Shown: positions 14,630-32,734 of the stretch, in pieces
How positions within the stretch are numbered: the first letter of the stretch is position 1
How the letters are laid out: each line of letters begins with the position of its first letter
Origin: an uncultured Elusimicrobium sp.
GTDB lineage: Bacteria; Elusimicrobiota; Elusimicrobia; Elusimicrobiales; Elusimicrobiaceae
NCBI GenBank assembly: GCA_947305555.1
Contig: CAMZDW010000007.1
Location: forward strand, 1 to 37,498
DNA length: 37,498 nt
Direction of reading: 5' to 3'
Notes under the pieces: generated by a model
The model's input: only the letters and a program-made list of their open reading frames with translations
Database searches by the model: none
What the model was told of the DNA's origin: nothing
Translations under genes and position numbers: made by a program

Positions 14630-16552
14630 ATGTATAAATTGGGATTATTTTTACTTTTTTGGAGTTGGGCTGCCTGGAAACGTGGAGACTGGGTACGTTC
14701 CAAACAAACTCTGTTTATTTTGGGAATGTTTCTAGGGATCCCACTCGTTATTCGAATATTATTATTGATTTGCTACCCTTCTTTGTTCAGTTCGTTGCAA
14801 CTGTCAGATATAGGGCTGGGTATCCGGCAAGGCTTTGTAGGGGACCTATCAATGCTAGCGCTGTGGGGAGGAGGGAGTTTATTATTAGTAAATTTCCCCA
14901 TTTCTTCCGTTTCTTATCGTAAATGGATAGGCGTTTTCACGATATTTATTTGGGACTGTTACGTATGGATTCTACTGGCAGATCTCATCTATTTTCGCTA
15001 TATTGGAAGGCATACCGGTCCAGATATTTTTAATTTCTTTTTATCGGCCACGCTCGTGCTAAAAACAGCATTTTATTCATATAAGTGGGTGCCTATTTTG
15101 GGAACGATTTGGTTTGCAGGTAGCTTCTATGTCGCGTGGAAGTATATGCAACGGGAAAAACAACTGCACCGTGGTTCAGTATTTTATGAAGTATTTTGTA
15201 TAGGAATAATTATTTTCTTTATTTATTTTTCCGAGAGAGGATATTTTTTTAGCAAGGATCCTTTGGTTCCACAGCAAACGTATGTGGCGGGACGTGCTCA
15301 AGGACATTTTGCGCTCAATGGCGTATTTAGCATGGTGTATAATTTAATGCCCGCGCACTACATTCGTTCCACAAAGAATAAATTGTCACATCCTAGTTTG
15401 AATGAGTTAAGTGAGGAGAAAAGTTTGAGTCTGGCTCAGCAATTGGTTATCTCGTCCAATGAACAAGTTCCGGATCCAAAATTCCCTCTGCAGCGCGTGC
15501 GGCATAAATTTACTTACCCACAAACTAAGAAACATTTAATTATCTTGGCTTTTGAAAGTTTGGATTACCGCCAGATTGATTTTTGGGCAGGCACTAATTA
15601 CGGGGCGACACCGCATTTGGATTCTCTATTAAAACAAGGTCAATTATTTGATTATTTTTATTCTTGTTCTGAAAATTCTAGTTTATTAGGGGTTGGAACC
15701 GTCATGTCCGGTTTGTGTTGGGTGTCGGGAATCCCTTACTTTTCCCGTGGGCTGGAGCAAACAAATCAGCGAGGATTGGGCCAGTTATTCACATCGGCAG
15801 GTTATCGGTCTGTTTTTGTGCGTGCTTGTGAAGATTCCACTATGTATATAGGGCCTTTGAGCCGCTTGATGGGGTATGATTCTTTTGGAAGGGAGCGCAT
15901 TAAAAAGGAATACGGCAAAAAACAAGTATACGATGCGGAAGCCTTGGAAGTGTTAGCTGACCAATTTAAAAAAAGTAAGCAGCCTTTTTCCGGTTTTTTC
16001 TTTTCAACAGCTACGCACGAACCGTTTGATTTATGGACGCCAAAAGAGTTAAATCCGGTAATAGAGAAAAAATTCAAAAATGATCCCTATCTCCGCGCGC
16101 TGGCTTATACTGATGAAGCGGTAGGCCAATTTCTCCGGACTTTACAGGAAAACGGATTATACGAAGATACCGTGTTTATTTTAGTAGGCGATCATCCTCA
16201 GCGGGAAATAAACCATGCAGGTCAAGAAAAATACCACGTTCCTTTTGCGTTAATTGCACCGGGGATTATTCCTGCCAAACGAAGTCAAACGATAGGCGGA
16301 CAAGCAGATGTGCTTCCTACGATTATAGATTTATTTCATATTTCAGAGCCATATGCGGCATTAGGCACCAGCTTGTTGGAAGATACCTCCAAGGAATGGG
16401 CTTATGTTACGCAAGAAGAGGGGAATGATTTTTCATTCATTACTCCCTTGGGACTCATTCCGGAAAATCAGCCGTCTTCTTATCATCAGCAGATGGTAGG
16501 GTTAAATACAGCGGCCTACACAATTCTACACAAGAATGCATGGGTGCAATAG
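14630..16552 (+). CDS. LtaS/OpgB-like sulfatase-fold membrane transferase
   Basis: 640 residues: about five to six membrane helices in 1-205, a linker, and an extracytoplasmic alkaline-phosphatase-fold domain from about 300. Family members (LtaS, OpgB/MdoB) move phosphoglycerol from phosphatidylglycerol to a glycan or lipid acceptor. Visible metal-site residues are Glu309 (ILAFESLDYR) and Asp521-His522 (LVGDHPQRE). The nucleophile, Thr in LtaS (FYS-x4-T), aligns here with Ser350 or Ser351 in YSCSENSSLLG, an unusual change. THEPFDLW (462-469) is the usual histidine motif. It has its own promoter and stands between rplI and dnaB. Acceptor unknown; a periplasmic glycan or surface polymer is the natural guess. 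Confidence 0.85.
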   Translation: MYKLGLFLLFWSWAAWKRGDWVRSKQTLFILGMFLGIPLVIRILLLICYPSLFSSLQLSDIGLGIRQGFVGDLSMLALWGGGSLLLVNFPISSVSYRKWIGVFTIFIWDCYVWILLADLIYFRYIGRHTGPDIFNFFLSATLVLKTAFYSYKWVPILGTIWFAGSFYVAWKYMQREKQLHRGSVFYEVFCIGIIIFFIYFSERGYFFSKDPLVPQQTYVAGRAQGHFALNGVFSMVYNLMPAHYIRSTKNKLSHPSLNELSEEKSLSLAQQLVISSNEQVPDPKFPLQRVRHKFTYPQTKKHLIILAFESLDYRQIDFWAGTNYGATPHLDSLLKQGQLFDYFYSCSENSSLLGVGTVMSGLCWVSGIPYFSRGLEQTNQRGLGQLFTSAGYRSVFVRACEDSTMYIGPLSRLMGYDSFGRERIKKEYGKKQVYDAEALEVLADQFKKSKQPFSGFFFSTATHEPFDLWTPKELNPVIEKKFKNDPYLRALAYTDEAVGQFLRTLQENGLYEDTVFILVGDHPQREINHAGQEKYHVPFALIAPGIIPAKRSQTIGGQADVLPTIIDLFHISEPYAALGTSLLEDTSKEWAYVTQEEGNDFSFITPLGLIPENQPSSYHQQMVGLNTAAYTILHKNAWVQ

Positions 16553-16685: not shown

Positions 16686-18104
16686 ATGGTTCGTAATTTA
16701 GTAGAAGAACGTATTCCGCCGCAAGCAATAGATGCGGAGATGGCCGTTTTGGGCTCCATGCTTTTGGAATCTGAGGCCGTGAGCGATGCTTTGGAAATTT
16801 TAAAACCGGAACATTTTTACAAAGAGGCCCATCAAAAAATTTTTAACGCGATGAAAACACTCGCGGACCGTGGGCAGGCCGTGGATATTGTTACCGTTAG
16901 CGAGGAGCTTAAAAAGAATAATTTGCTCGCCCAATTGGGTGGCGAAGTGTATTTAACGCAGTTGGTAGATAAAGTGGCTACCGCGGCCCACGTGAAACAT
17001 TATGCCGAAATTGTATATAAGAAATACGTGGTGCGTGATTTAATCCGTACGGCCACCGGGCTCGTACAGCGTTGCTACAAAGAGGAAGAAGATAATCCCC
17101 AACTTTTAATTGATAGCGCTGCGGATCAAATCTACAAATTGAGCCAAAAACAAAAATTATCTGGGTTTATATCGTCTAAAGATTTGGCCCCGGAAGTCAT
17201 GGATTTATTAGAAAAAGCCAGCCAAAACAAGAATGCAATTCAGGGTGTTCCCACGGGGTTGGATGCGTTTGACCACCGCACGGGGGGACTTCGCAAATCT
17301 GACCTCATTATTCTGGGAGCTCGTCCCAGTCAGGGGAAAACGGCCCTGGCCCTAAATATTGCTCACCACGCATGTGTAGAATGTGGAATTCCGGTGGCAT
17401 TTTTCTCGCTGGAAATGGGGAGACATAGCATCTTTGAACGTATGCTGGGGGCTTCAGCGATGGTGGAAATCCATAAATTGCGTACCGGTTGGTTTGACCG
17501 CAGTAAATGGTCGGATTTGACACGCGAATTGGGGCGCTTATCCTCGGCTCCTTTTTATATTGATGATACGTCCGGTATTTCCATTACGGAGCTCCGGATG
17601 CGTTCACGGCGTTTAGCCAGCGAACTTAAAAAACAAGGCAAAGAGTTGGGGCTTATTGTTATTGATTATTTGCAGCTGATTCGGGGTGGCGAACGACGTA
17701 CAGAAAGCCGCCAACAAGAAGTGAGTGAAATTTCCCGTATGCTTAAAGATTTGGCGCGTACGCTCAATGTGCCGGTATTGGCGCTTTCCCAATTAAGCCG
17801 TAAAAATGAAGATAAAGCACGTACGGATAATAAACCACAACTTTCCGATTTGCGTGAATCAGGCTCTATTGAACAAGATGCCGACGTAGTCGCACTCATT
17901 CACCGGGATTGGTATTACAAACGGGAGGATGAATCGCTTAAAAATAAAGCTACGCTCATTATTGCCAAACAGCGTAACGGCCCAGTGGGAGATATTGATT
18001 TAGCCTTCTTTGGCGAGTATGCCCTCTTTACCAACCCGGCTCCGGAGCACATGGAAACGGAACAAAATAGGGGTGGTAATACGATGATGGAGCTGCCAGA
18101 ATAA
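16686..18104 (+). CDS. dnaB: Replicative DNA helicase DnaB
   Basis: 472 residues. The N-terminal domain begins PPQAIDAEMAVLGSML; the RecA-like C-terminal domain has Walker A GARPSQGKTA (211-220), FFSLEMG, the Walker B text LIVIDYLQLI, and the DnaB signature LSQLSRKNEDK, followed by SDLRESGSIEQDAD. Unwinds DNA at the fork as a hexamer. Ribosome binding site AGAGGTT before the ATG. It heads a run with alr, mlaE, mlaF, mlaD and radA. Confidence 0.98.
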   Translation: MVRNLVEERIPPQAIDAEMAVLGSMLLESEAVSDALEILKPEHFYKEAHQKIFNAMKTLADRGQAVDIVTVSEELKKNNLLAQLGGEVYLTQLVDKVATAAHVKHYAEIVYKKYVVRDLIRTATGLVQRCYKEEEDNPQLLIDSAADQIYKLSQKQKLSGFISSKDLAPEVMDLLEKASQNKNAIQGVPTGLDAFDHRTGGLRKSDLIILGARPSQGKTALALNIAHHACVECGIPVAFFSLEMGRHSIFERMLGASAMVEIHKLRTGWFDRSKWSDLTRELGRLSSAPFYIDDTSGISITELRMRSRRLASELKKQGKELGLIVIDYLQLIRGGERRTESRQQEVSEISRMLKDLARTLNVPVLALSQLSRKNEDKARTDNKPQLSDLRESGSIEQDADVVALIHRDWYYKREDESLKNKATLIIAKQRNGPVGDIDLAFFGEYALFTNPAPEHMETEQNRGGNTMMELPE

Positions 18105-18107
18105 CTT

Positions 18108-19214
18108 ATGGAAAGCCCGATTTTACGACCGACGGTGGCAGAAGTTGACCTGACAAAACTGGCCCGTAACTTACAAAAAGTACGCGGATTGGTGAAGCCG
18201 GGCGTCAAACTGCTCACTTTGGTTAAAGCCAATGCATACGGGCACGGAGCCGTGGCAGTCAGCCGCTATCTGGAGCAGAATAAATTATGTGAATTCTTTG
18301 GGGTTGCTTCGGTAGAAGAAGGGCTCCTATTACGTGCGGCCGGGCTCAAAAATTCTATTTTGGTGTTGGGAAGTATTTATCCGTTTGAAGCGTTTGAATA
18401 TGCCATCAAAAACAATTTGGCTATTACGATAGCCAGCCAAGCCGCCGCGGAAGCGGTGTGTAAAATTGCTGAGAAGTTAGGCCAAAAGGCGTTTTGCCAT
18501 GTGAAACAAGATACGGGGATGGGGCGTATCGGCACACGCCGCGGTAAAGTGGTGGGGGTAATTGAAACTTTAGCCCAAAATCCTCACATAGTCTTGGATG
18601 GACTTTATACCCATTTATCCAGCGTGGATAGTGACGCAGCTTTTACCGAAGAGCAAATTGGCTATTACCGTGACACGTTGACGCACGTGCAGTTGCAAGG
18701 AATTCGCATCAATCATTGTCATGTGGCGGCGAGTACGGCTATTGAGGCTCGGCCCGATGTGCATTATGATATGGTTCGGCCCGGTCATAGCGCGTATGGG
18801 CTAGAAAAAGGATATGAACCAATTCTTTCTTTGAAAACCCGGATTGTGTATGTAAAGGATGTTCCGGCAGGGGGAAGCATCAGTTATGGGCGTAGTTTTA
18901 TAGCTCCGGCTCCCATGAAGGTAGCTACACTTCCGTTAGGATATGGGGATGGATATTTACGGGCGCTTTCTAATAAAGGGGAAGTGCTGGTGCGCGGAAA
19001 ACGGTGCCGGGTATTAGGGAATGTAACGATGGATATGTTGATGATAGACATTACGAACGTTCCGGGGGCTGCCGTAGGAGACGAAGTAATCGTCGTTGGT
19101 AAACAAGGGACGGATGAAATTACGCTAGCGGAGGTAGCCCGGAAGGCAGGCACGATTGATTATGAGCTTTGCACCCTTCTAATGCCGCGCGTACCGAGGA
19201 TTTATAAAGAATGA
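18108..19214 (+). CDS. alr: Alanine racemase
   Basis: 368 residues. PLP-binding Lys40 in LVKANAYGHGA and the second catalytic base Tyr in SISYGRSF (about 258) are present, with HVKQDTGMGRIG and the C-terminal Greek-key domain. Makes D-alanine for peptidoglycan. It starts three bases after the dnaB stop, and its own stop overlaps the mlaE start. Confidence 0.97.
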   Translation: MESPILRPTVAEVDLTKLARNLQKVRGLVKPGVKLLTLVKANAYGHGAVAVSRYLEQNKLCEFFGVASVEEGLLLRAAGLKNSILVLGSIYPFEAFEYAIKNNLAITIASQAAAEAVCKIAEKLGQKAFCHVKQDTGMGRIGTRRGKVVGVIETLAQNPHIVLDGLYTHLSSVDSDAAFTEEQIGYYRDTLTHVQLQGIRINHCHVAASTAIEARPDVHYDMVRPGHSAYGLEKGYEPILSLKTRIVYVKDVPAGGSISYGRSFIAPAPMKVATLPLGYGDGYLRALSNKGEVLVRGKRCRVLGNVTMDMLMIDITNVPGAAVGDEVIVVGKQGTDEITLAEVARKAGTIDYELCTLLMPRVPRIYKE

Positions 19215-19987
19215 TAAAGCGAATAGGTAAATATGTGGCAGGGCTGTTAGCGCAGGTGGGTGAAGCGACTGAAATGATTCGCTCTTCATTCTTCTGGCTC
19301 TTTCGCTCTAAATTCGAATTTCATCAAGCTATGAATCAAGGCGTGGCTATAGGGGTAAATTCGTTTGGGGTTACCGCCTTAACCAGTCTATTTACCGGAA
19401 TGGTGCTTGCACTACAAGCAGGTAATACCATTAACAGCATTTTTGGCGATCCGATTTTTGTGGGAACGATTGTGGCGTTCTCATTAATTCGTGAACTAGG
19501 CCCGGTACTGACTGGGGTGGTTGTTTCCGGCCGGGCGGGAGCAGCGGTTACGGCACAGATCGGTACGATGGCAGTTACCGAACAGATTGATGCTCTTTAC
19601 ACATTAGGCACTAACCCCATCCGGTACTTGGTAATTCCGCGTATGTTCGGGTTTGTTCTTACCATACCAATCTTGACGCTTTTTTCCAACGTATTTGGTA
19701 TTATTGGCGGCTATTTGGTGGCCGTATATGCGTTGGGAGTTCCCGGCGAAATCTACATGACGGATATCACCACCTTTATGGATGTGGCCGATTTTCTCCA
19801 TGGATTTATTAAATCGTTTATCTTTGCATTTATGATTGGAACGGTTTGTTGTTACAAAGGAATTAGCACGCGCGGCGGTGCCGAAGGGGTAGGGAAATCT
19901 ACTACCGGGGCTGTGGTTACTACCATTGTGCTTATTTTGGTGCTGGATTACTTCTTAACAGCTATTTTGACCGCTTTGGGGATTTAA
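19211..19987 (+). CDS. mlaE: MlaE-type ABC transporter permease
   Basis: 258 residues, the size of MlaE. The family core ELGPVLTGVVVSGRAGAA, then TAQIGTMAVTEQIDALYTLG, and NVFGIIGGYLVA are all present; about five to six membrane helices. It forms the inner-membrane channel of the Mla lipid transporter with MlaF (next gene) and MlaD. Coupled to alr by ATGA. Confidence 0.95.
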   Translation: MIKRIGKYVAGLLAQVGEATEMIRSSFFWLFRSKFEFHQAMNQGVAIGVNSFGVTALTSLFTGMVLALQAGNTINSIFGDPIFVGTIVAFSLIRELGPVLTGVVVSGRAGAAVTAQIGTMAVTEQIDALYTLGTNPIRYLVIPRMFGFVLTIPILTLFSNVFGIIGGYLVAVYALGVPGEIYMTDITTFMDVADFLHGFIKSFIFAFMIGTVCCYKGISTRGGAEGVGKSTTGAVVTTIVLILVLDYFLTAILTALGI

Positions 19988-19988
19988 G

Positions 19989-20753
19989 ATGATAGAGATT
20001 AAAAACCTTCATAAAAACTTTGGTGAAAAAGAAGTGTTAAAGGGTATTAATTTACAGATTCCCGAAGGTAAAGTGACGTGTATTTTAGGGGGGTCCGGCT
20101 GCGGGAAAAGTACGCTTATTAAGTGCTTAATTCGTTTGGAAGAACCGACTTCCGGCCATATTTTGGTAGATGGCAAAGATATTACACATTTACAAAATGA
20201 AATCCGTTTAGCGGCTATTCGCCGTCACTTTGGATACTTGTTTCAGGAAGGGGCTCTATTTGACTCCATGACGGTTGGGGAAAATGTGTCGTTTGGGCTT
20301 AAATATTTAACCCGCATTCCGGAGAGCGAATATCCGCGTATCATTAAAGAAAAATTAGCGTTGGTGGGTTTGCAGGAAGACGTTGCAAAGTTAAATCCAA
20401 GTGAACTTTCCGGCGGGATGAAAAAACGTGTATCGCTGGCGCGGGTGTTGGCGGTGAACCCTAAAGTTATTTTGTACGACGAGCCAACCACCGGGTTGGA
20501 CCCGATTATGTCCGACATTATTAGTGATTTAATTTTAGATTTGAAAGAAAAACTGAAAGTGACTTCCGTAGTCATCACGCACGATATGCACTCGGCTTTT
20601 AAAATTGCCGACTATATCGCATTTTTATATGAAGGAAAAATTTTGCTTCACGGTACGCCCGAAGAATTTAGGAAAACGGATAATCCGTACGTAAAGCAGT
20701 TTGTCAGCGGTTCGAGTCACGGGCCGATTCAAATGAAACTGATGAAAGAATAA
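19989..20753 (+). CDS. mlaF: MlaF-type ABC transporter ATPase
   Basis: 254 residues. Walker A GGSGCGKST, Q-loop LFQEGALFDSMTV (the phrase GALFDSMTV is typical of MlaF), ABC signature LSGGMKKRVSLAR, Walker B VILYDEPTTGLDP and H-loop VVITHDMHS. It powers phospholipid movement through MlaE/MlaD at the inner membrane. Confidence 0.96.
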   Translation: MIEIKNLHKNFGEKEVLKGINLQIPEGKVTCILGGSGCGKSTLIKCLIRLEEPTSGHILVDGKDITHLQNEIRLAAIRRHFGYLFQEGALFDSMTVGENVSFGLKYLTRIPESEYPRIIKEKLALVGLQEDVAKLNPSELSGGMKKRVSLARVLAVNPKVILYDEPTTGLDPIMSDIISDLILDLKEKLKVTSVVITHDMHSAFKIADYIAFLYEGKILLHGTPEEFRKTDNPYVKQFVSGSSHGPIQMKLMKE

Positions 20754-20767
20754 GTAAGGGGAAATAC

Positions 20768-22063
20768 ATGAAACCAGAAATAAAATTAGGTATTTTTGCG
20801 ATATTAGGATTATGCATTTTTGGATATTCGCTTTATTTTTTAGGCGGAATTTCCGTTACGCGCACGTATGACTTGAACGTCAAATTTCAAGACGTTTCGG
20901 GCTTGCCCGTTAAAGCGCCGGTAAAACTTTCCGGTGTGGAAATTGGTAAAGTAAAGCAAATTAAAATTGAAGAAGGCGACGTAATCGTTGTGGCCGAGAT
21001 CAATAAAGGGCAAGAAATTCGCCATGGGGCACAATTTTCTGTTGTGATGACGGGGATTATCGGTACAAAATACTTGCGTGTGGTACAAGGACCTTCGGGC
21101 GAAAGTGCCTATAAAGCCGGTGATTATATTTTAGGTACGGACGAAATCCCGATGGATGTGATGATTACACAAACCATGGCGAGTATCAAGGGTTTTGTAG
21201 ACAGCGTTAATAACCAAGGTGCGTTTGGCGACCGATTAAATGATACGATGACCCAAGTGCGTCAACTTTCTACCAATTTAAACCAAATGGTAGCAACCAT
21301 GCGTCCCTACATGACGCGCACCATGCAAAATTTGGATGTTGCCAGCGCGCGGTTAAACGAATTAATGGCTAGGGCGGATTCGCTTCTGGAAGGCTTAGAA
21401 AATGGGGAAGGCGTCATTGGCGGATTATTAAAAGACCCGGAAATGAAAGAGGACGTGAAAGAAAGTGTGAGTGACTTGAAAAGTACCATGGCTGAAGTAA
21501 AAACATTTGTAGGCAAAATGAGTCGCTTCCACGTATATTGGGATTACGACTTCTTCTATATGCCCGAGGATCACTTAACTTCTAGCGATTTGGCGCTTGA
21601 AATTTTCCCATCTAGCGGTTACACATTCTACCGCGTAGGGATGGCAAACTTGGGCAATGAAGAGGACCGCTTGCATGACAAAGATTATTTAGAAAAGAAC
21701 AAATTTGACGTGCGTTTTGGGTTGTATAACGACTGGGCAAAATTCTCGGCCGGGTTAATTCGCGGTGGTGGTGGGGTGGCTTTGGAATTAAAGCCTTTCC
21801 ACGATCAAGAATTCTTCAACCGCTTTACATTTACCGGGGAATTTTATGACTGGGGACGTGACCGTACCATTAATGGCCATTACTTCAATAAACCAAACCT
21901 CAGTTATGGGGTAGATTTCCGCTTTAACCGGTATTTCTCTGTAGGCGCGTGGGCACGTGACGCATTAGAAACGAATGATTTCGCGGTGAAGGCAAACGTG
22001 TCGTTTAACGACGAGGATATTACGTCATTCTTCGGTTTAGCGGCGGTGGCAGGTTCTAGATAA
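20768..22063 (+). CDS. mlaD: MlaD-type MCE protein with C-terminal beta-barrel-like domain
   Basis: 431 residues against about 180 in E. coli MlaD. Anchor helix 8-26; one MCE domain about 35-115 (DVSGLPVKAPVKLSGVEIGKV); a helical stretch about 130-250 with heptad-like spacing that could form a tube; then about 180 beta-rich residues (252-431). This last part has amphipathic strands such as FDVRFGLYNDWAKFSAGLIR, GGGGVALELKP, FTFTGEFYDWGRD and NLSYGVDFRFNRYFSVGAWARDAL, matching the outer-membrane barrel tail of MCE proteins of some other diderms. Inference: one protein spans from inner to outer membrane, replacing MlaC and MlaA, neither of which is encoded here. AAGGGGAA is the ribosome binding site. 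Confidence 0.9.
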   Translation: MKPEIKLGIFAILGLCIFGYSLYFLGGISVTRTYDLNVKFQDVSGLPVKAPVKLSGVEIGKVKQIKIEEGDVIVVAEINKGQEIRHGAQFSVVMTGIIGTKYLRVVQGPSGESAYKAGDYILGTDEIPMDVMITQTMASIKGFVDSVNNQGAFGDRLNDTMTQVRQLSTNLNQMVATMRPYMTRTMQNLDVASARLNELMARADSLLEGLENGEGVIGGLLKDPEMKEDVKESVSDLKSTMAEVKTFVGKMSRFHVYWDYDFFYMPEDHLTSSDLALEIFPSSGYTFYRVGMANLGNEEDRLHDKDYLEKNKFDVRFGLYNDWAKFSAGLIRGGGGVALELKPFHDQEFFNRFTFTGEFYDWGRDRTINGHYFNKPNLSYGVDFRFNRYFSVGAWARDALETNDFAVKANVSFNDEDITSFFGLAAVAGSR

Positions 22064-22065
22064 TT

Positions 22066-23433
22066 ATGAAATTTAAAACGGTTTTCGTGTGCCAAAAGTG
22101 CGGGTTTGAAGCTCCTAAATGGGCTGGTAAGTGCCCCGATTGTGGGGAGTGGAATAGCTTGGTGGAAGAAGTCAAGCAACAGGAAAGTAAAAAAGCACCT
22201 GCCCGCACGCGCAGCTTTACGGATTTTTCTTCGGAAGTAGTAAAATTGTCAGAAAGTAAAGCGGTGCATGAAGCCCGTATCCAAACTCATCTTACCGAAT
22301 TTGATCGCTTGTTGGGGGGAGGCCTTGTCAAAGGGCAACTGACGCTTTTGGCCGGCGCGCCCGGTATTGGCAAATCCACCCTCATGCTACAAGTAGCAGC
22401 CGAGCTTTCTAAGCAATTCAAAGTGCTTTATATTTCCGGGGAAGAAAGCACCGGCCAAATCTCCGGCCGTGCGCAACGGTTGGGTGTCAACGGTGATAAT
22501 ATTTATTTGCTGTGTGAAACGGATATTCAAAAAGTAGTGGAAGCGGTAGAAAATATCAAACCCGAAGTGTTGATTTTGGACTCCATTCAAACGGTATATC
22601 ACCCGGAATTTACCTCCTCAGCCGGAACGGTGGCCCAGGTGCGAGAGTGCACCAGCGAACTAGTACGATTGTGTAAGCCCAAAGGAATTATTACGTTCGT
22701 TTTAGGACACGTGACTAAGGATGGAGAGTTGGCTGGGCCGAAAATTTTAGAGCATATGGTGGACTGTGTGTTGTATTTTGATACGGAAAAAGACAATGTG
22801 CTCCGGCTACTACGCCCGCATAAAAATCGTTTTGGTTCTACGGGAGAAATTGGTCTTTTTAAAATGACGGGAAAGGGGTTAGAATCAGTAGAAAATGCCA
22901 GCGAATATTTTGCCCAAACTTCGCGTCAAAGTGCACTGAAAGGGCGTGCTTATTCGCTCGCGTTAGAAGGTTCCCGGCCGATTTTAACCGAAGTACAAGC
23001 GCTCGTTTCTCCCACGCGTTATCCGTTTCCGCGTCGTGTGGCTACGGGGATTGATTTGAACCGCTGTTTAATGCTTTTTGCGGCGCTGGAAAAACACATT
23101 GGTTTGCCGCTAGACAATAAAGATATTTTTGTCAGTTTGGCCGGGGGCGTAAAACTGAAAGACCCAGCACTTGATTTGGCTGTTTGCGCGGCGGTGATTA
23201 GTTCGTGCAAAGATATTGCTTTGCCGCATGATAGTCTATTTATGGCCGAAGTGGGCATTTTGGGTCAAGTAGCTAAAGTTCCACTTGTAGACCGTCGGTT
23301 GGATGAAGCCCAACGCCTTGGATTTAAGAAAGCCTATGGGGCTGTTGTCACTAAGACCGAAAAACAAAAACTTAAAGAAATGACACTACTTGAACTAGCC
23401 GACCTGAACGATTTGACGATGAAGTTAAGATAA
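22066..23433 (+). CDS. radA: DNA repair protein RadA (Sms)
   Basis: 455 residues: zinc finger Cys9, 12, 23, 26 (CQKCGF and CPDCGEW), RecA-like core with Walker A GAPGIGKST (97-105), the RadA-specific KNRFG motif (HKNRFGSTGEIGLF) and a Lon-protease-like C-terminal domain with VSLAGGVKLKDPALDLAV. It promotes branch migration in recombination. It starts two bases after the mlaD stop and is the last gene of the run; only a weak AGGG/CCCT inverted repeat (near 23463-23478) follows. Confidence 0.97.
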   Translation: MKFKTVFVCQKCGFEAPKWAGKCPDCGEWNSLVEEVKQQESKKAPARTRSFTDFSSEVVKLSESKAVHEARIQTHLTEFDRLLGGGLVKGQLTLLAGAPGIGKSTLMLQVAAELSKQFKVLYISGEESTGQISGRAQRLGVNGDNIYLLCETDIQKVVEAVENIKPEVLILDSIQTVYHPEFTSSAGTVAQVRECTSELVRLCKPKGIITFVLGHVTKDGELAGPKILEHMVDCVLYFDTEKDNVLRLLRPHKNRFGSTGEIGLFKMTGKGLESVENASEYFAQTSRQSALKGRAYSLALEGSRPILTEVQALVSPTRYPFPRRVATGIDLNRCLMLFAALEKHIGLPLDNKDIFVSLAGGVKLKDPALDLAVCAAVISSCKDIALPHDSLFMAEVGILGQVAKVPLVDRRLDEAQRLGFKKAYGAVVTKTEKQKLKEMTLLELADLNDLTMKLR

Positions 23434-32179: not shown

Positions 32180-32734
32180 ATGAAAAGCATAAAAAATAAA
32201 CGCGGTTACACGTTACTAGAATTATTGGTGGTTGTGCTGATTATTGGGATACTTGCGGCAATGGCTTATCCCTACTACAGTCGTGCCATTGAACGCTCGC
32301 GCATCATGGACATGCTGGTGTTACTAGGGACGGAACGCGCCTCGCAGGAGCGTTATAAGTTAACGAAACACCATTTCACCAGATATTGGCATAATTTGGA
32401 TGCGGCACCGTTTCGTGTTTCGCCTCCCGGTACAGATAACGATTATTTTAATGCAGACCGTACCGAATTCTACACGCGCGGTGGTTTTTTGTCGCAAAAG
32501 TTTTGGCCTAGTTATAAAGTATATTTTGACCAGAAAGAAGGCGACCATTGGTTTCTCGTGGCAGAACGTATTGGCTGGGGGGGATACGATTATACATTCG
32601 TCCGTTCATTTGATGATACACTCGCGATTTGTGTTCCCAATCCGGATCATGCGGATAGCGTTACGCTATGTACTGATTTTATGGGGGTAGATAGCTTGGA
32701 TAAATTACCCGGGGACCCCCGTGAAGGCCTGTAA
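32180..32734 (+). CDS. Type IV prepilin-like protein 2
   Basis: 184 residues. Cleavage Gly9^Tyr10, then YTLLELLVVVLIIGILAAMA with Glu at mature position 5, followed by YPYYSRAIERSRIMDMLVLL. The globular part is rich in aromatic residues and ends with two Cys around PNPDHADSVTLCTDFMGVDS, similar to the C-terminal loop of the 35375 pilin (LCxxxxxEARxLCADFCGLD). This makes it more like pilin 3 than pilin 1. It could be a minor pilin. Confidence 0.92.
   Translation: MKSIKNKRGYTLLELLVVVLIIGILAAMAYPYYSRAIERSRIMDMLVLLGTERASQERYKLTKHHFTRYWHNLDAAPFRVSPPGTDNDYFNADRTEFYTRGGFLSQKFWPSYKVYFDQKEGDHWFLVAERIGWGGYDYTFVRSFDDTLAICVPNPDHADSVTLCTDFMGVDSLDKLPGDPREGL

What the first reader, a model, noticed from the sequence alone, without database searches (positions are those of the whole stretch)
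19211..22063. MlaEFD with a long MlaD that seems to end in an outer-membrane beta-barrel
Seen: MlaD is 431 residues, with a helix anchor, one MCE domain, about 120 helical residues and about 180 beta-rich residues. mlaA, mlaB and mlaC are absent here. Known: a barrel-tailed MlaD acting as a trans-envelope bridge was described in the diderm Firmicute Veillonella parvula. Inference: the same single-protein bridge would operate here, supporting the idea that it is an ancestral form.
Basis: partly seen in the sequence, partly recalled or inferred. Interest (0 to 1): 0.65.

Follow-up and report, generated by a model that had tools for sequence, protein, structure and literature searches.

The report
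Barrel-tailed MlaD lipid bridge in Elusimicrobiota

Summary
The window is from a gut Elusimicrobiaceae genome. 19211-22063 encodes MlaE, MlaF and a 431-residue MlaD: anchor helix, one MCE domain, about 120 helical residues, and a tail that AlphaFold2 models as ten strands (pLDDT 83), closest to ten-stranded outer-membrane barrels (OpcA, Pla/OmpT). An MlaD match is found in 266 of 285 genomes of the phylum. All 17 distant loci I opened keep the tail, and the order dnaB-alr-mlaEFD-radA reaches into other classes, so it is old within Elusimicrobiota. MlaA and MlaC were not found in the window's genome. This matches the bridge described in Veillonella parvula; the phylum is not mentioned in that paper's main text.

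Two additions. (1) The genome also has a second MCE transporter with a PqiC-like lipoprotein, so this is not the cell's only candidate bridge. (2) In one sister family mlaEFD is missing from its slot between alr and radA, and an mlaA-mlaC-MMPL/RND cassette sits exactly there. Two other genomes have an empty slot and the cassette elsewhere. That swap suggests the two sets do the same job. Exceptions carry both.

Bridge function, hexamer, direction and localisation remain inferred. New member of a known kind, with an informative natural replacement.

The parts
16686..18104 (+). dnaB, replicative helicase; upstream neighbour that marks the conserved slot
   Evidence: PF03796 1.5e-97; order kept in relatives
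18108..19214 (+). alr, alanine racemase; overlaps mlaE by 4 nt
   Evidence: PF01168/PF00842; ORF list
19211..19987 (+). mlaE, permease
   Evidence: PF02405 9.8e-75; TIGR00056 243 bits, over cut-off
19989..20753 (+). mlaF, ABC ATPase
   Evidence: PF00005 4.2e-37
20768..22063 (+). mlaD, 431 aa, long barrel-tailed form
   Evidence: PF02470 3.5e-15; model
20774..20842 (+). MlaD residues 3-25: inner-membrane anchor helix
   Evidence: AF2 helix, block pLDDT 42-57
20861..21139 (+). MlaD residues 32-124: MCE domain
   Evidence: PF02470 on 32-108; PDB MlaD chains by phmmer
21140..21520 (+). MlaD residues 125-251: helical stretch, proposed periplasmic tunnel
   Evidence: AF2 helices 129-251, mostly pLDDT under or near 50
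21530..22009 (+). MlaD residues 255-414: ten-stranded barrel
   Evidence: AF2 tail model pLDDT 83.3; fold searches; alternation test
22013..22054 (+). MlaD residues 416-429: C-terminal helix after the last strand, next to conserved D415/D417/G423
22066..23433 (+). radA, downstream neighbour that marks the conserved slot
   Evidence: Pfam hits (gene name by recall); conserved next to mlaD

Best explanation
MlaEFD here is a minimal phospholipid transporter of the Veillonella type. MlaE and MlaF form an ABC transporter in the inner membrane. Six MlaD copies (inferred from known MCE proteins) sit on it; their helices build a hydrophobic tunnel across the periplasm; and each C-terminal ten-stranded barrel anchors that tunnel in the outer membrane. 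So no shuttle (MlaC) and no outer-membrane lipoprotein (MlaA) is needed. The likely task is lipid transport that keeps the outer membrane asymmetric (most likely retrograde, by analogy). Shown here: genes, domain order, predicted barrel, phylum-wide conservation, absence of MlaA/MlaC in the genome as held, and displacement by an mlaA-mlaC-RND cassette in relatives. Inferred: hexamer, spanning, substrate and direction.
For: Domain calls; tail model ten strands, pLDDT 83.3, pTM 0.76; best structural matches are outer-membrane barrels OpcA Z 14.8 (152 aligned, 3.3 A), Pla Z 12.9 (140 aligned, 3.1 A), designed ten-strand TMB Z 11.2 (132 aligned, 3.0 A); amphipathic alternation, 0 of 20000 shuffles; in the tail the polar face is as conserved as the hydrophobic one (entropy 1.24 against 1.35), unlike the MCE domain where the hydrophobic core is the conserved face (0.76 against 1.72), as expected if the hydrophobic side faces lipid. 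MlaD profile matches in 266 of 285 phylum genomes and full tail in 17 of 17 distant loci opened. MlaA in 12 of 285. In-slot replacement by mlaA-mlaC-RND in G201, G118, G266 and by at least its RND end in G265; slot empty with cassette elsewhere in G194 and G268. V. parvula precedent with fractionation: PMC10665443, sections 8 and 9 and first part of the Discussion read.
Against: The helical stretch is mostly at or under pLDDT 50. No multimer could be modelled. The V. parvula authors themselves say that their barrel is too narrow for a phospholipid and that a ring of six barrels seems unlikely from predictions, so the barrel may only anchor. Soluble barrels also score (BFA1 Z 10.4, DUF3598 Z 9.7). 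Complementarity with MlaA is incomplete: six of the 12 MlaA-positive genomes also match MlaD (one of them, G267, only weakly), and five order-level relatives have MlaC-like genes without MlaA. The face-conservation inversion alone is not significant (4084 of 20000).
Confidence: 0.75

Rival explanations
1. The tail is an outer-membrane barrel that only anchors or caps the helical needle; lipids leave or enter at the needle tip or side and the barrel conducts nothing. (A variant of the best explanation, not exclusive of it.)
For: Ten strands make a narrow barrel; the V. parvula paper calls its barrel too narrow for phospholipid and mentions anchoring as an option. The second system of this genome has a PqiC-like lipoprotein instead, a cap without a barrel.
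Against: Nothing found here separates it from a conducting role; strong conservation of polar-face residues may be more than an anchor needs.
Confidence: 0.5
2. The tail is a soluble periplasmic lipid-binding barrel (nitrobindin- or lipocalin-like) that hands lipids over at the outer membrane.
For: Some soluble barrels score in the same list (BFA1 Z 10.4, DUF3598 Z 9.7, nitrobindin Z 8.0).
Against: Outer-membrane barrels rank above them (OpcA Z 14.8, Pla 12.9; top Foldseek rows); the glycine- and charge-rich polar face is conserved, whereas soluble barrels are expected to conserve the hydrophobic core as the MCE domain does.
Confidence: 0.1
3. The transporter moves another lipid or works outward (inner to outer membrane).
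For: Direction and substrate are not read from sequence; Mla direction was long disputed (PMC10212509, title and abstract start in a search listing).
Against: Where mlaEFD is lost outside reduced genomes, a cassette with MlaA and MlaC is present in 6 of 7 informative genomes (in G265 only the RND end is seen), and MlaA/MlaC are parts of the retrograde system in E. coli (PMC10665443 abstract). But that cassette's own direction is unknown.
Confidence: 0.25

Closest known systems
Veillonella parvula MlaEFD with barrel-tailed MlaD (PMC10665443)
   Same: Three genes only, MlaD of similar length (419 against 431), anchor, one MCE domain, long helix, C-terminal ten-stranded barrel, no MlaA or MlaC
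   Different: Other phylum; neighbours are dnaB-alr and radA rather than tolC and tamB; helical stretch about 120 rather than about 150 residues; sequence homology of the two tails not tested; a second MCE system is present in this genome
E. coli Mla system (MlaFEDB-MlaC-MlaA-OmpC)
   Same: MlaE, MlaF and the MCE domain of MlaD
   Different: MlaD is more than twice as long and below the TIGR04430 cut-off (69 of 135 bits); no MlaA, MlaB or MlaC at the locus, no MlaA or MlaC found in the genome
Brucella Mpc and E. coli Pqi systems (PMC12436622)
   Same: Resembles the second locus of this genome: extended MlaE, MlaF, an MCE protein (267 aa) nearest to PqiB, and a PF03886 PqiC-like lipoprotein
   Different: That is another locus; the window's MlaD ends in a barrel instead of pairing with a lipoprotein
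HpnN/HpnM hopanoid transport (RND plus MlaC-like protein)
   Same: The displacing cassette has an MMPL/RND transporter and an MlaC-family protein
   Different: Far below the HpnN/HpnM cut-offs (88 of 752 and 54 of 160 bits) and includes MlaA

Membership tests
V. parvula-type barrel-tailed MlaD | N-terminal membrane helix and a single MCE domain | tested here: met
   Helix 3-25 (low pLDDT); PF02470 56.5 bits, one stretch
V. parvula-type barrel-tailed MlaD | Long helical region between MCE domain and tail | tested here: met
   Helices 129-251 predicted, low confidence
V. parvula-type barrel-tailed MlaD | C-terminal ten-stranded outer-membrane barrel | tested here: met
   By prediction only: ten strands, pLDDT 83.3; OpcA Z 14.8, Pla 12.9
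V. parvula-type barrel-tailed MlaD | mlaE and mlaF adjacent, no mlaA or mlaC in the genome | tested here: met
   genome 80% complete, so relatives used as well
V. parvula-type barrel-tailed MlaD | Tail homologous in sequence to the V. parvula tail | not testable with these tools
   No Veillonella MlaD could be fetched; the only genome-contig scan returned Elusimicrobiota; plasmids gave no tail match in the 40 of 154 records shown
V. parvula-type barrel-tailed MlaD | Tail located in the outer membrane, function in lipid asymmetry | not testable with these tools
   Needs fractionation and mutants
E. coli-type OM_asym_MlaD (TIGR04430) | Score over the curated cut-off, short MlaD | tested here: not met
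   69.1 bits against 135; 431 aa
E. coli-type six-part Mla system | MlaA and MlaC present | tested here: not met
Mpc/Pqi-type system (second locus, not the window) | PqiC-like auxiliary lipoprotein next to MCE protein, MlaE, MlaF | tested here: met
   PF03886 2.6e-24, PF02470 1.7e-9, PF02405 3.1e-65
Mpc/Pqi-type system (second locus, not the window) | STAS domain fused to the permease | tested here: inconclusive
   Extra N-terminal residues, STAS-like by eye, no Pfam STAS hit

The most novel reading that the evidence does not exclude
In Elusimicrobiota the barrel-tailed MlaEFD bridge and an mlaA-mlaC-MMPL/RND cassette are interchangeable, complete routes for the same lipids, and one has displaced the other in place. 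If so, MlaA and MlaC can work with an RND pump (proton-driven, by recall of the family) instead of an ABC/MCE complex, which would mean that the MlaA-MlaC shuttle is a separate module that can replace a bridge outright.
Probability: 0.4. Interest if true: 0.7.

Novelty: new member of a known kind. Interest (0 to 1): 0.55.

Why it matters
The V. parvula paper places barrel-tailed MlaD in diderm Terrabacteria and in some Proteobacteria and close relatives, and finds none in the PVC and FCB groups. A phylum-wide, slot-conserved barrel MlaD in Elusimicrobiota (placed among Gracilicutes by recall) widens that distribution and bears on the ancestral claim. The in-place swap for MlaA-MlaC-RND is a natural replacement that points to shared function, and offers a pair of gene sets whose exchange can be tried in the laboratory.

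Tried and rejected
MlaC in the window's genome: a 16.3-bit match was checked and lies in a triosephosphate isomerase frame (recognised by recall): chance.

Same-genus genome G011 (99% complete) seemed to lack MlaD. It also lacks RadA, so the whole region is missing from that assembly; I do not count it as a loss. The same holds for G165, G261, G263, G279, G159 and, with a RadA fragment only, G243: 7 of the 19 MlaD-negative genomes are uninformative. G263 still counts in the raw table (6 of 12 MlaA-positive against 13 of 273 MlaA-negative genomes lack MlaD, Fisher p 2.8e-5), which is not corrected for kinship.

Plasmid records as a source of tails in other phyla: 154 records; of the 40 listed none reaches beyond residue 304, nearly all end at 245. 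Papers: no held paper joins Elusimicrobia, outer membrane and lipid asymmetry; the five with 'Elusimicrob' and 'mlad' look unrelated from titles and abstract starts; none joins MlaA, MlaC, gene cluster, RND transporter and phylogeny terms; searches gave no report of such a cassette in the listed titles and abstract starts.

Not done: tail status in the weaker matches (families f3, f4, f6, f9, f12-f14, f16, f19, f20), whose places were not printed; TamB, Lol and LPS genes; any multimer model. Coordinates of the models were not available, so which face of the barrel points out was not read directly.
Full report
What is there. The three frames at 19211-22063 are mlaE, mlaF and mlaD, in a tight run alr-mlaE-mlaF-mlaD-radA (overlap 4 nt, gaps 1, 14 and 2 nt). 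Pfam and NCBIfam name MlaE (PF02405, TIGR00056 over cut-off), an ABC ATPase, and an MCE domain on residues 32-108 of the third protein; the libraries know nothing on the rest except sub-cut-off MCE and coiled-coil similarity. The nearest named genomes are gut Elusimicrobiaceae MAGs (88% identity of MlaD to uncultured Elusimicrobium sp. RUG14017). The window's genome has 1.36 Mb in 60 contigs and is 80% complete.

The tail. Eighty homologous rows (33-88% identity to the window protein, A2) gave a full-length model with anchor helix, MCE domain, helices 129-251 and ten strands 255-414 (mean pLDDT 62.6). The tail alone (A3) gave pLDDT 83.3 and pTM 0.76 with the same ten strands and a final helix. 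Foldseek's best PDB rows are membrane barrels with modest scores (a designed barrel 7.7e-4, invasin 9.0e-4, OmpA 3.5e-3). The second look by VIA-align puts OpcA first (Z 14.8, 152 residues, 3.3 A), then Pla (12.9), OpcA and Pla again (12.1), a designed ten-strand membrane barrel (11.2); soluble barrels follow (BFA1 10.4, DUF3598 9.7). That OpcA and Pla/OmpT are ten-stranded is recalled. The strands alternate hydrophobic and polar: mean difference 3.59 against 1.41 +/- 0.32 on shuffling within strands, 0 of 20000; with 15 distant rows alone 3.70, also 0 of 20000; the MCE strands, a positive control for any amphipathic sheet, are reached by 88 and 63 of 20000. What can separate a membrane barrel from a soluble one is which face is kept. 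In the MCE domain the hydrophobic face is kept (entropy 0.76 against 1.72); in the tail the polar face, rich in G, D, R and E, is kept at least as well (1.24 against 1.35; the difference by itself is not significant, 4084 of 20000). I take the tail to be an outer-membrane barrel at about 0.9.

Distribution. MlaD matches 40 of 41 near genomes (two of them only in pieces at contig ends), and the profile A1 matches 186 of 198 and 266 of 285 genomes of the phylum. Not every such match is shown to be full length: coordinates of the weaker ones were not printed. I opened 17 loci from other genera, families and classes; all 17 hold a frame of 417-449 residues whose tail aligns with this one at 22-50% identity. 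In 80 named loci MlaF lies beside MlaD in 77, MlaE in 75, RadA in 76, Alr in 68, DnaB in 62; most misses are contig ends, but L084, L087 and L105 lack a neighbour in spite of flank. The complete order dnaB-alr-mlaE-mlaF-mlaD-radA is seen in 8 of the 17 distant loci, including the single-contig genome G062 of another class. So mlaEFD with the barrel in this slot is old within the phylum.

MlaA and MlaC. The window's genome has no MlaA match and only a chance MlaC match. Across the phylum MlaA is found in 12 of 285 genomes and MlaC in 9 of 198. Five of those nine are order-level relatives with MlaC-like genes but no MlaA (G027, G031, G034, G202, G206); I looked at two, only as far as 25% identity to the cassette's MlaC.

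The swap. Of 19 genomes without an MlaD match, 7 also lack RadA or have a fragment and say nothing. The other 12: in G201, G118 and G266 (one family, f8) the slot reads dnaB-alr-mlaA-mlaC-MMPL/RND-radA-PIN-ispDF on single contigs; in G265 the RND end abuts radA at a contig start. In G194 and G268 alr and radA are adjacent, with no gene between, and the cassette lies elsewhere. Five small genomes (0.6-0.8 Mb) of another class keep dnaB-alr-radA without mlaEFD, and one (G136) has an MlaE remnant with stops in the slot: plain loss in reduced genomes. G076 has neither, and no dnaB or alr beside its radA. So outside reduced genomes 6 of 7 informative losses have the cassette (G265 by its RND end only). 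G267 has MlaA alone in the slot and a weak MlaD match. In the RadA tree family f8 is a clade (98/97) nested among lineages with mlaEFD in the slot; G268 (empty slot, cassette elsewhere) is sister, same genus, to G269 (mlaEFD in the slot, no MlaA) (100/100). This suggests that mlaEFD was lost in at least three lineages that hold the cassette. Against a simple either-or: G200, G284, G278 and G264 have mlaEFD and the cassette (for G264 the contig begins inside mlaD), and G188 has mlaEFD with MlaA-RND. The cassette's proteins are MlaA (PF04333), MlaC (PF05494) and an MMPL transporter (PF03176); the HpnM/HpnN models hit far below cut-off.

Second system. Contig C35 of the same genome encodes an MlaE with an N-terminal extension, an ABC ATPase, a 267-aa MCE protein nearest to PqiB, and a PF03886 lipoprotein. 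This resembles the Brucella Mpc system (PMC12436622; passages only). Two genus mates examined have MlaE and MCE matches of this second kind too (the full set read in one). One cell thus seems to hold two answers to the same problem: an MCE bridge ending in a barrel, and one ending in a lipoprotein cap.

How it works. By analogy with V. parvula (PMC10665443: sections 8, 9 and the first part of the Discussion read): ABC core, MCE hexamer, helical tunnel, barrel anchor. About 123 helical residues at 0.15 nm each give some 18 nm, plus the MCE ring; this is my estimate and would fit a periplasm a little narrower than that of V. parvula. Steps shown: genes, domains, predicted barrel, conservation, displacement. 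Steps inferred: hexamer, tunnel, spanning, substrate, direction, whether the barrel conducts or only anchors.

Novelty. Long barrel-tailed MlaD is published. The main text of that paper does not mention Elusimicrobia (0 occurrences); its supplement was not readable here, so the phylum may be listed there. I found no paper on the swap.

Noticed in passing
L158 (G000 contig C35) 4368-7662: Second MCE transporter in the window's genome: long MlaE, ABC ATPase, 267-aa PqiB-like MCE protein and a PqiC-like lipoprotein; genus mates G011 and G015 have matches of the same kind.
   Followed up: partly
L161, L162, L185, L207: mlaA-mlaC-MMPL/RND cassette (in L207 only its RND end) in the exact alr-radA slot where other Elusimicrobiota have mlaEFD.
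   Followed up: yes
L211 5201-5718: Stop-riddled MlaE remnant between alr and radA in a 0.8 Mb genome (G136): mlaEFD decaying in a reduced genome.
   Followed up: partly
L170, L171: MlaC-like genes without MlaA in genomes of the same order that also carry the long MlaD (G027, G034; also G031, G202, G206); role unknown.
   Followed up: no
14630-16552 +: Membrane sulfatase-family protein (PF00884) just upstream of dnaB, possibly an envelope phosphotransferase of the EptA/LtaS kind (by recall).
   Followed up: no
32180-32734 +: Protein with a type IV pilin-like methylation motif (PF07963).
   Followed up: no
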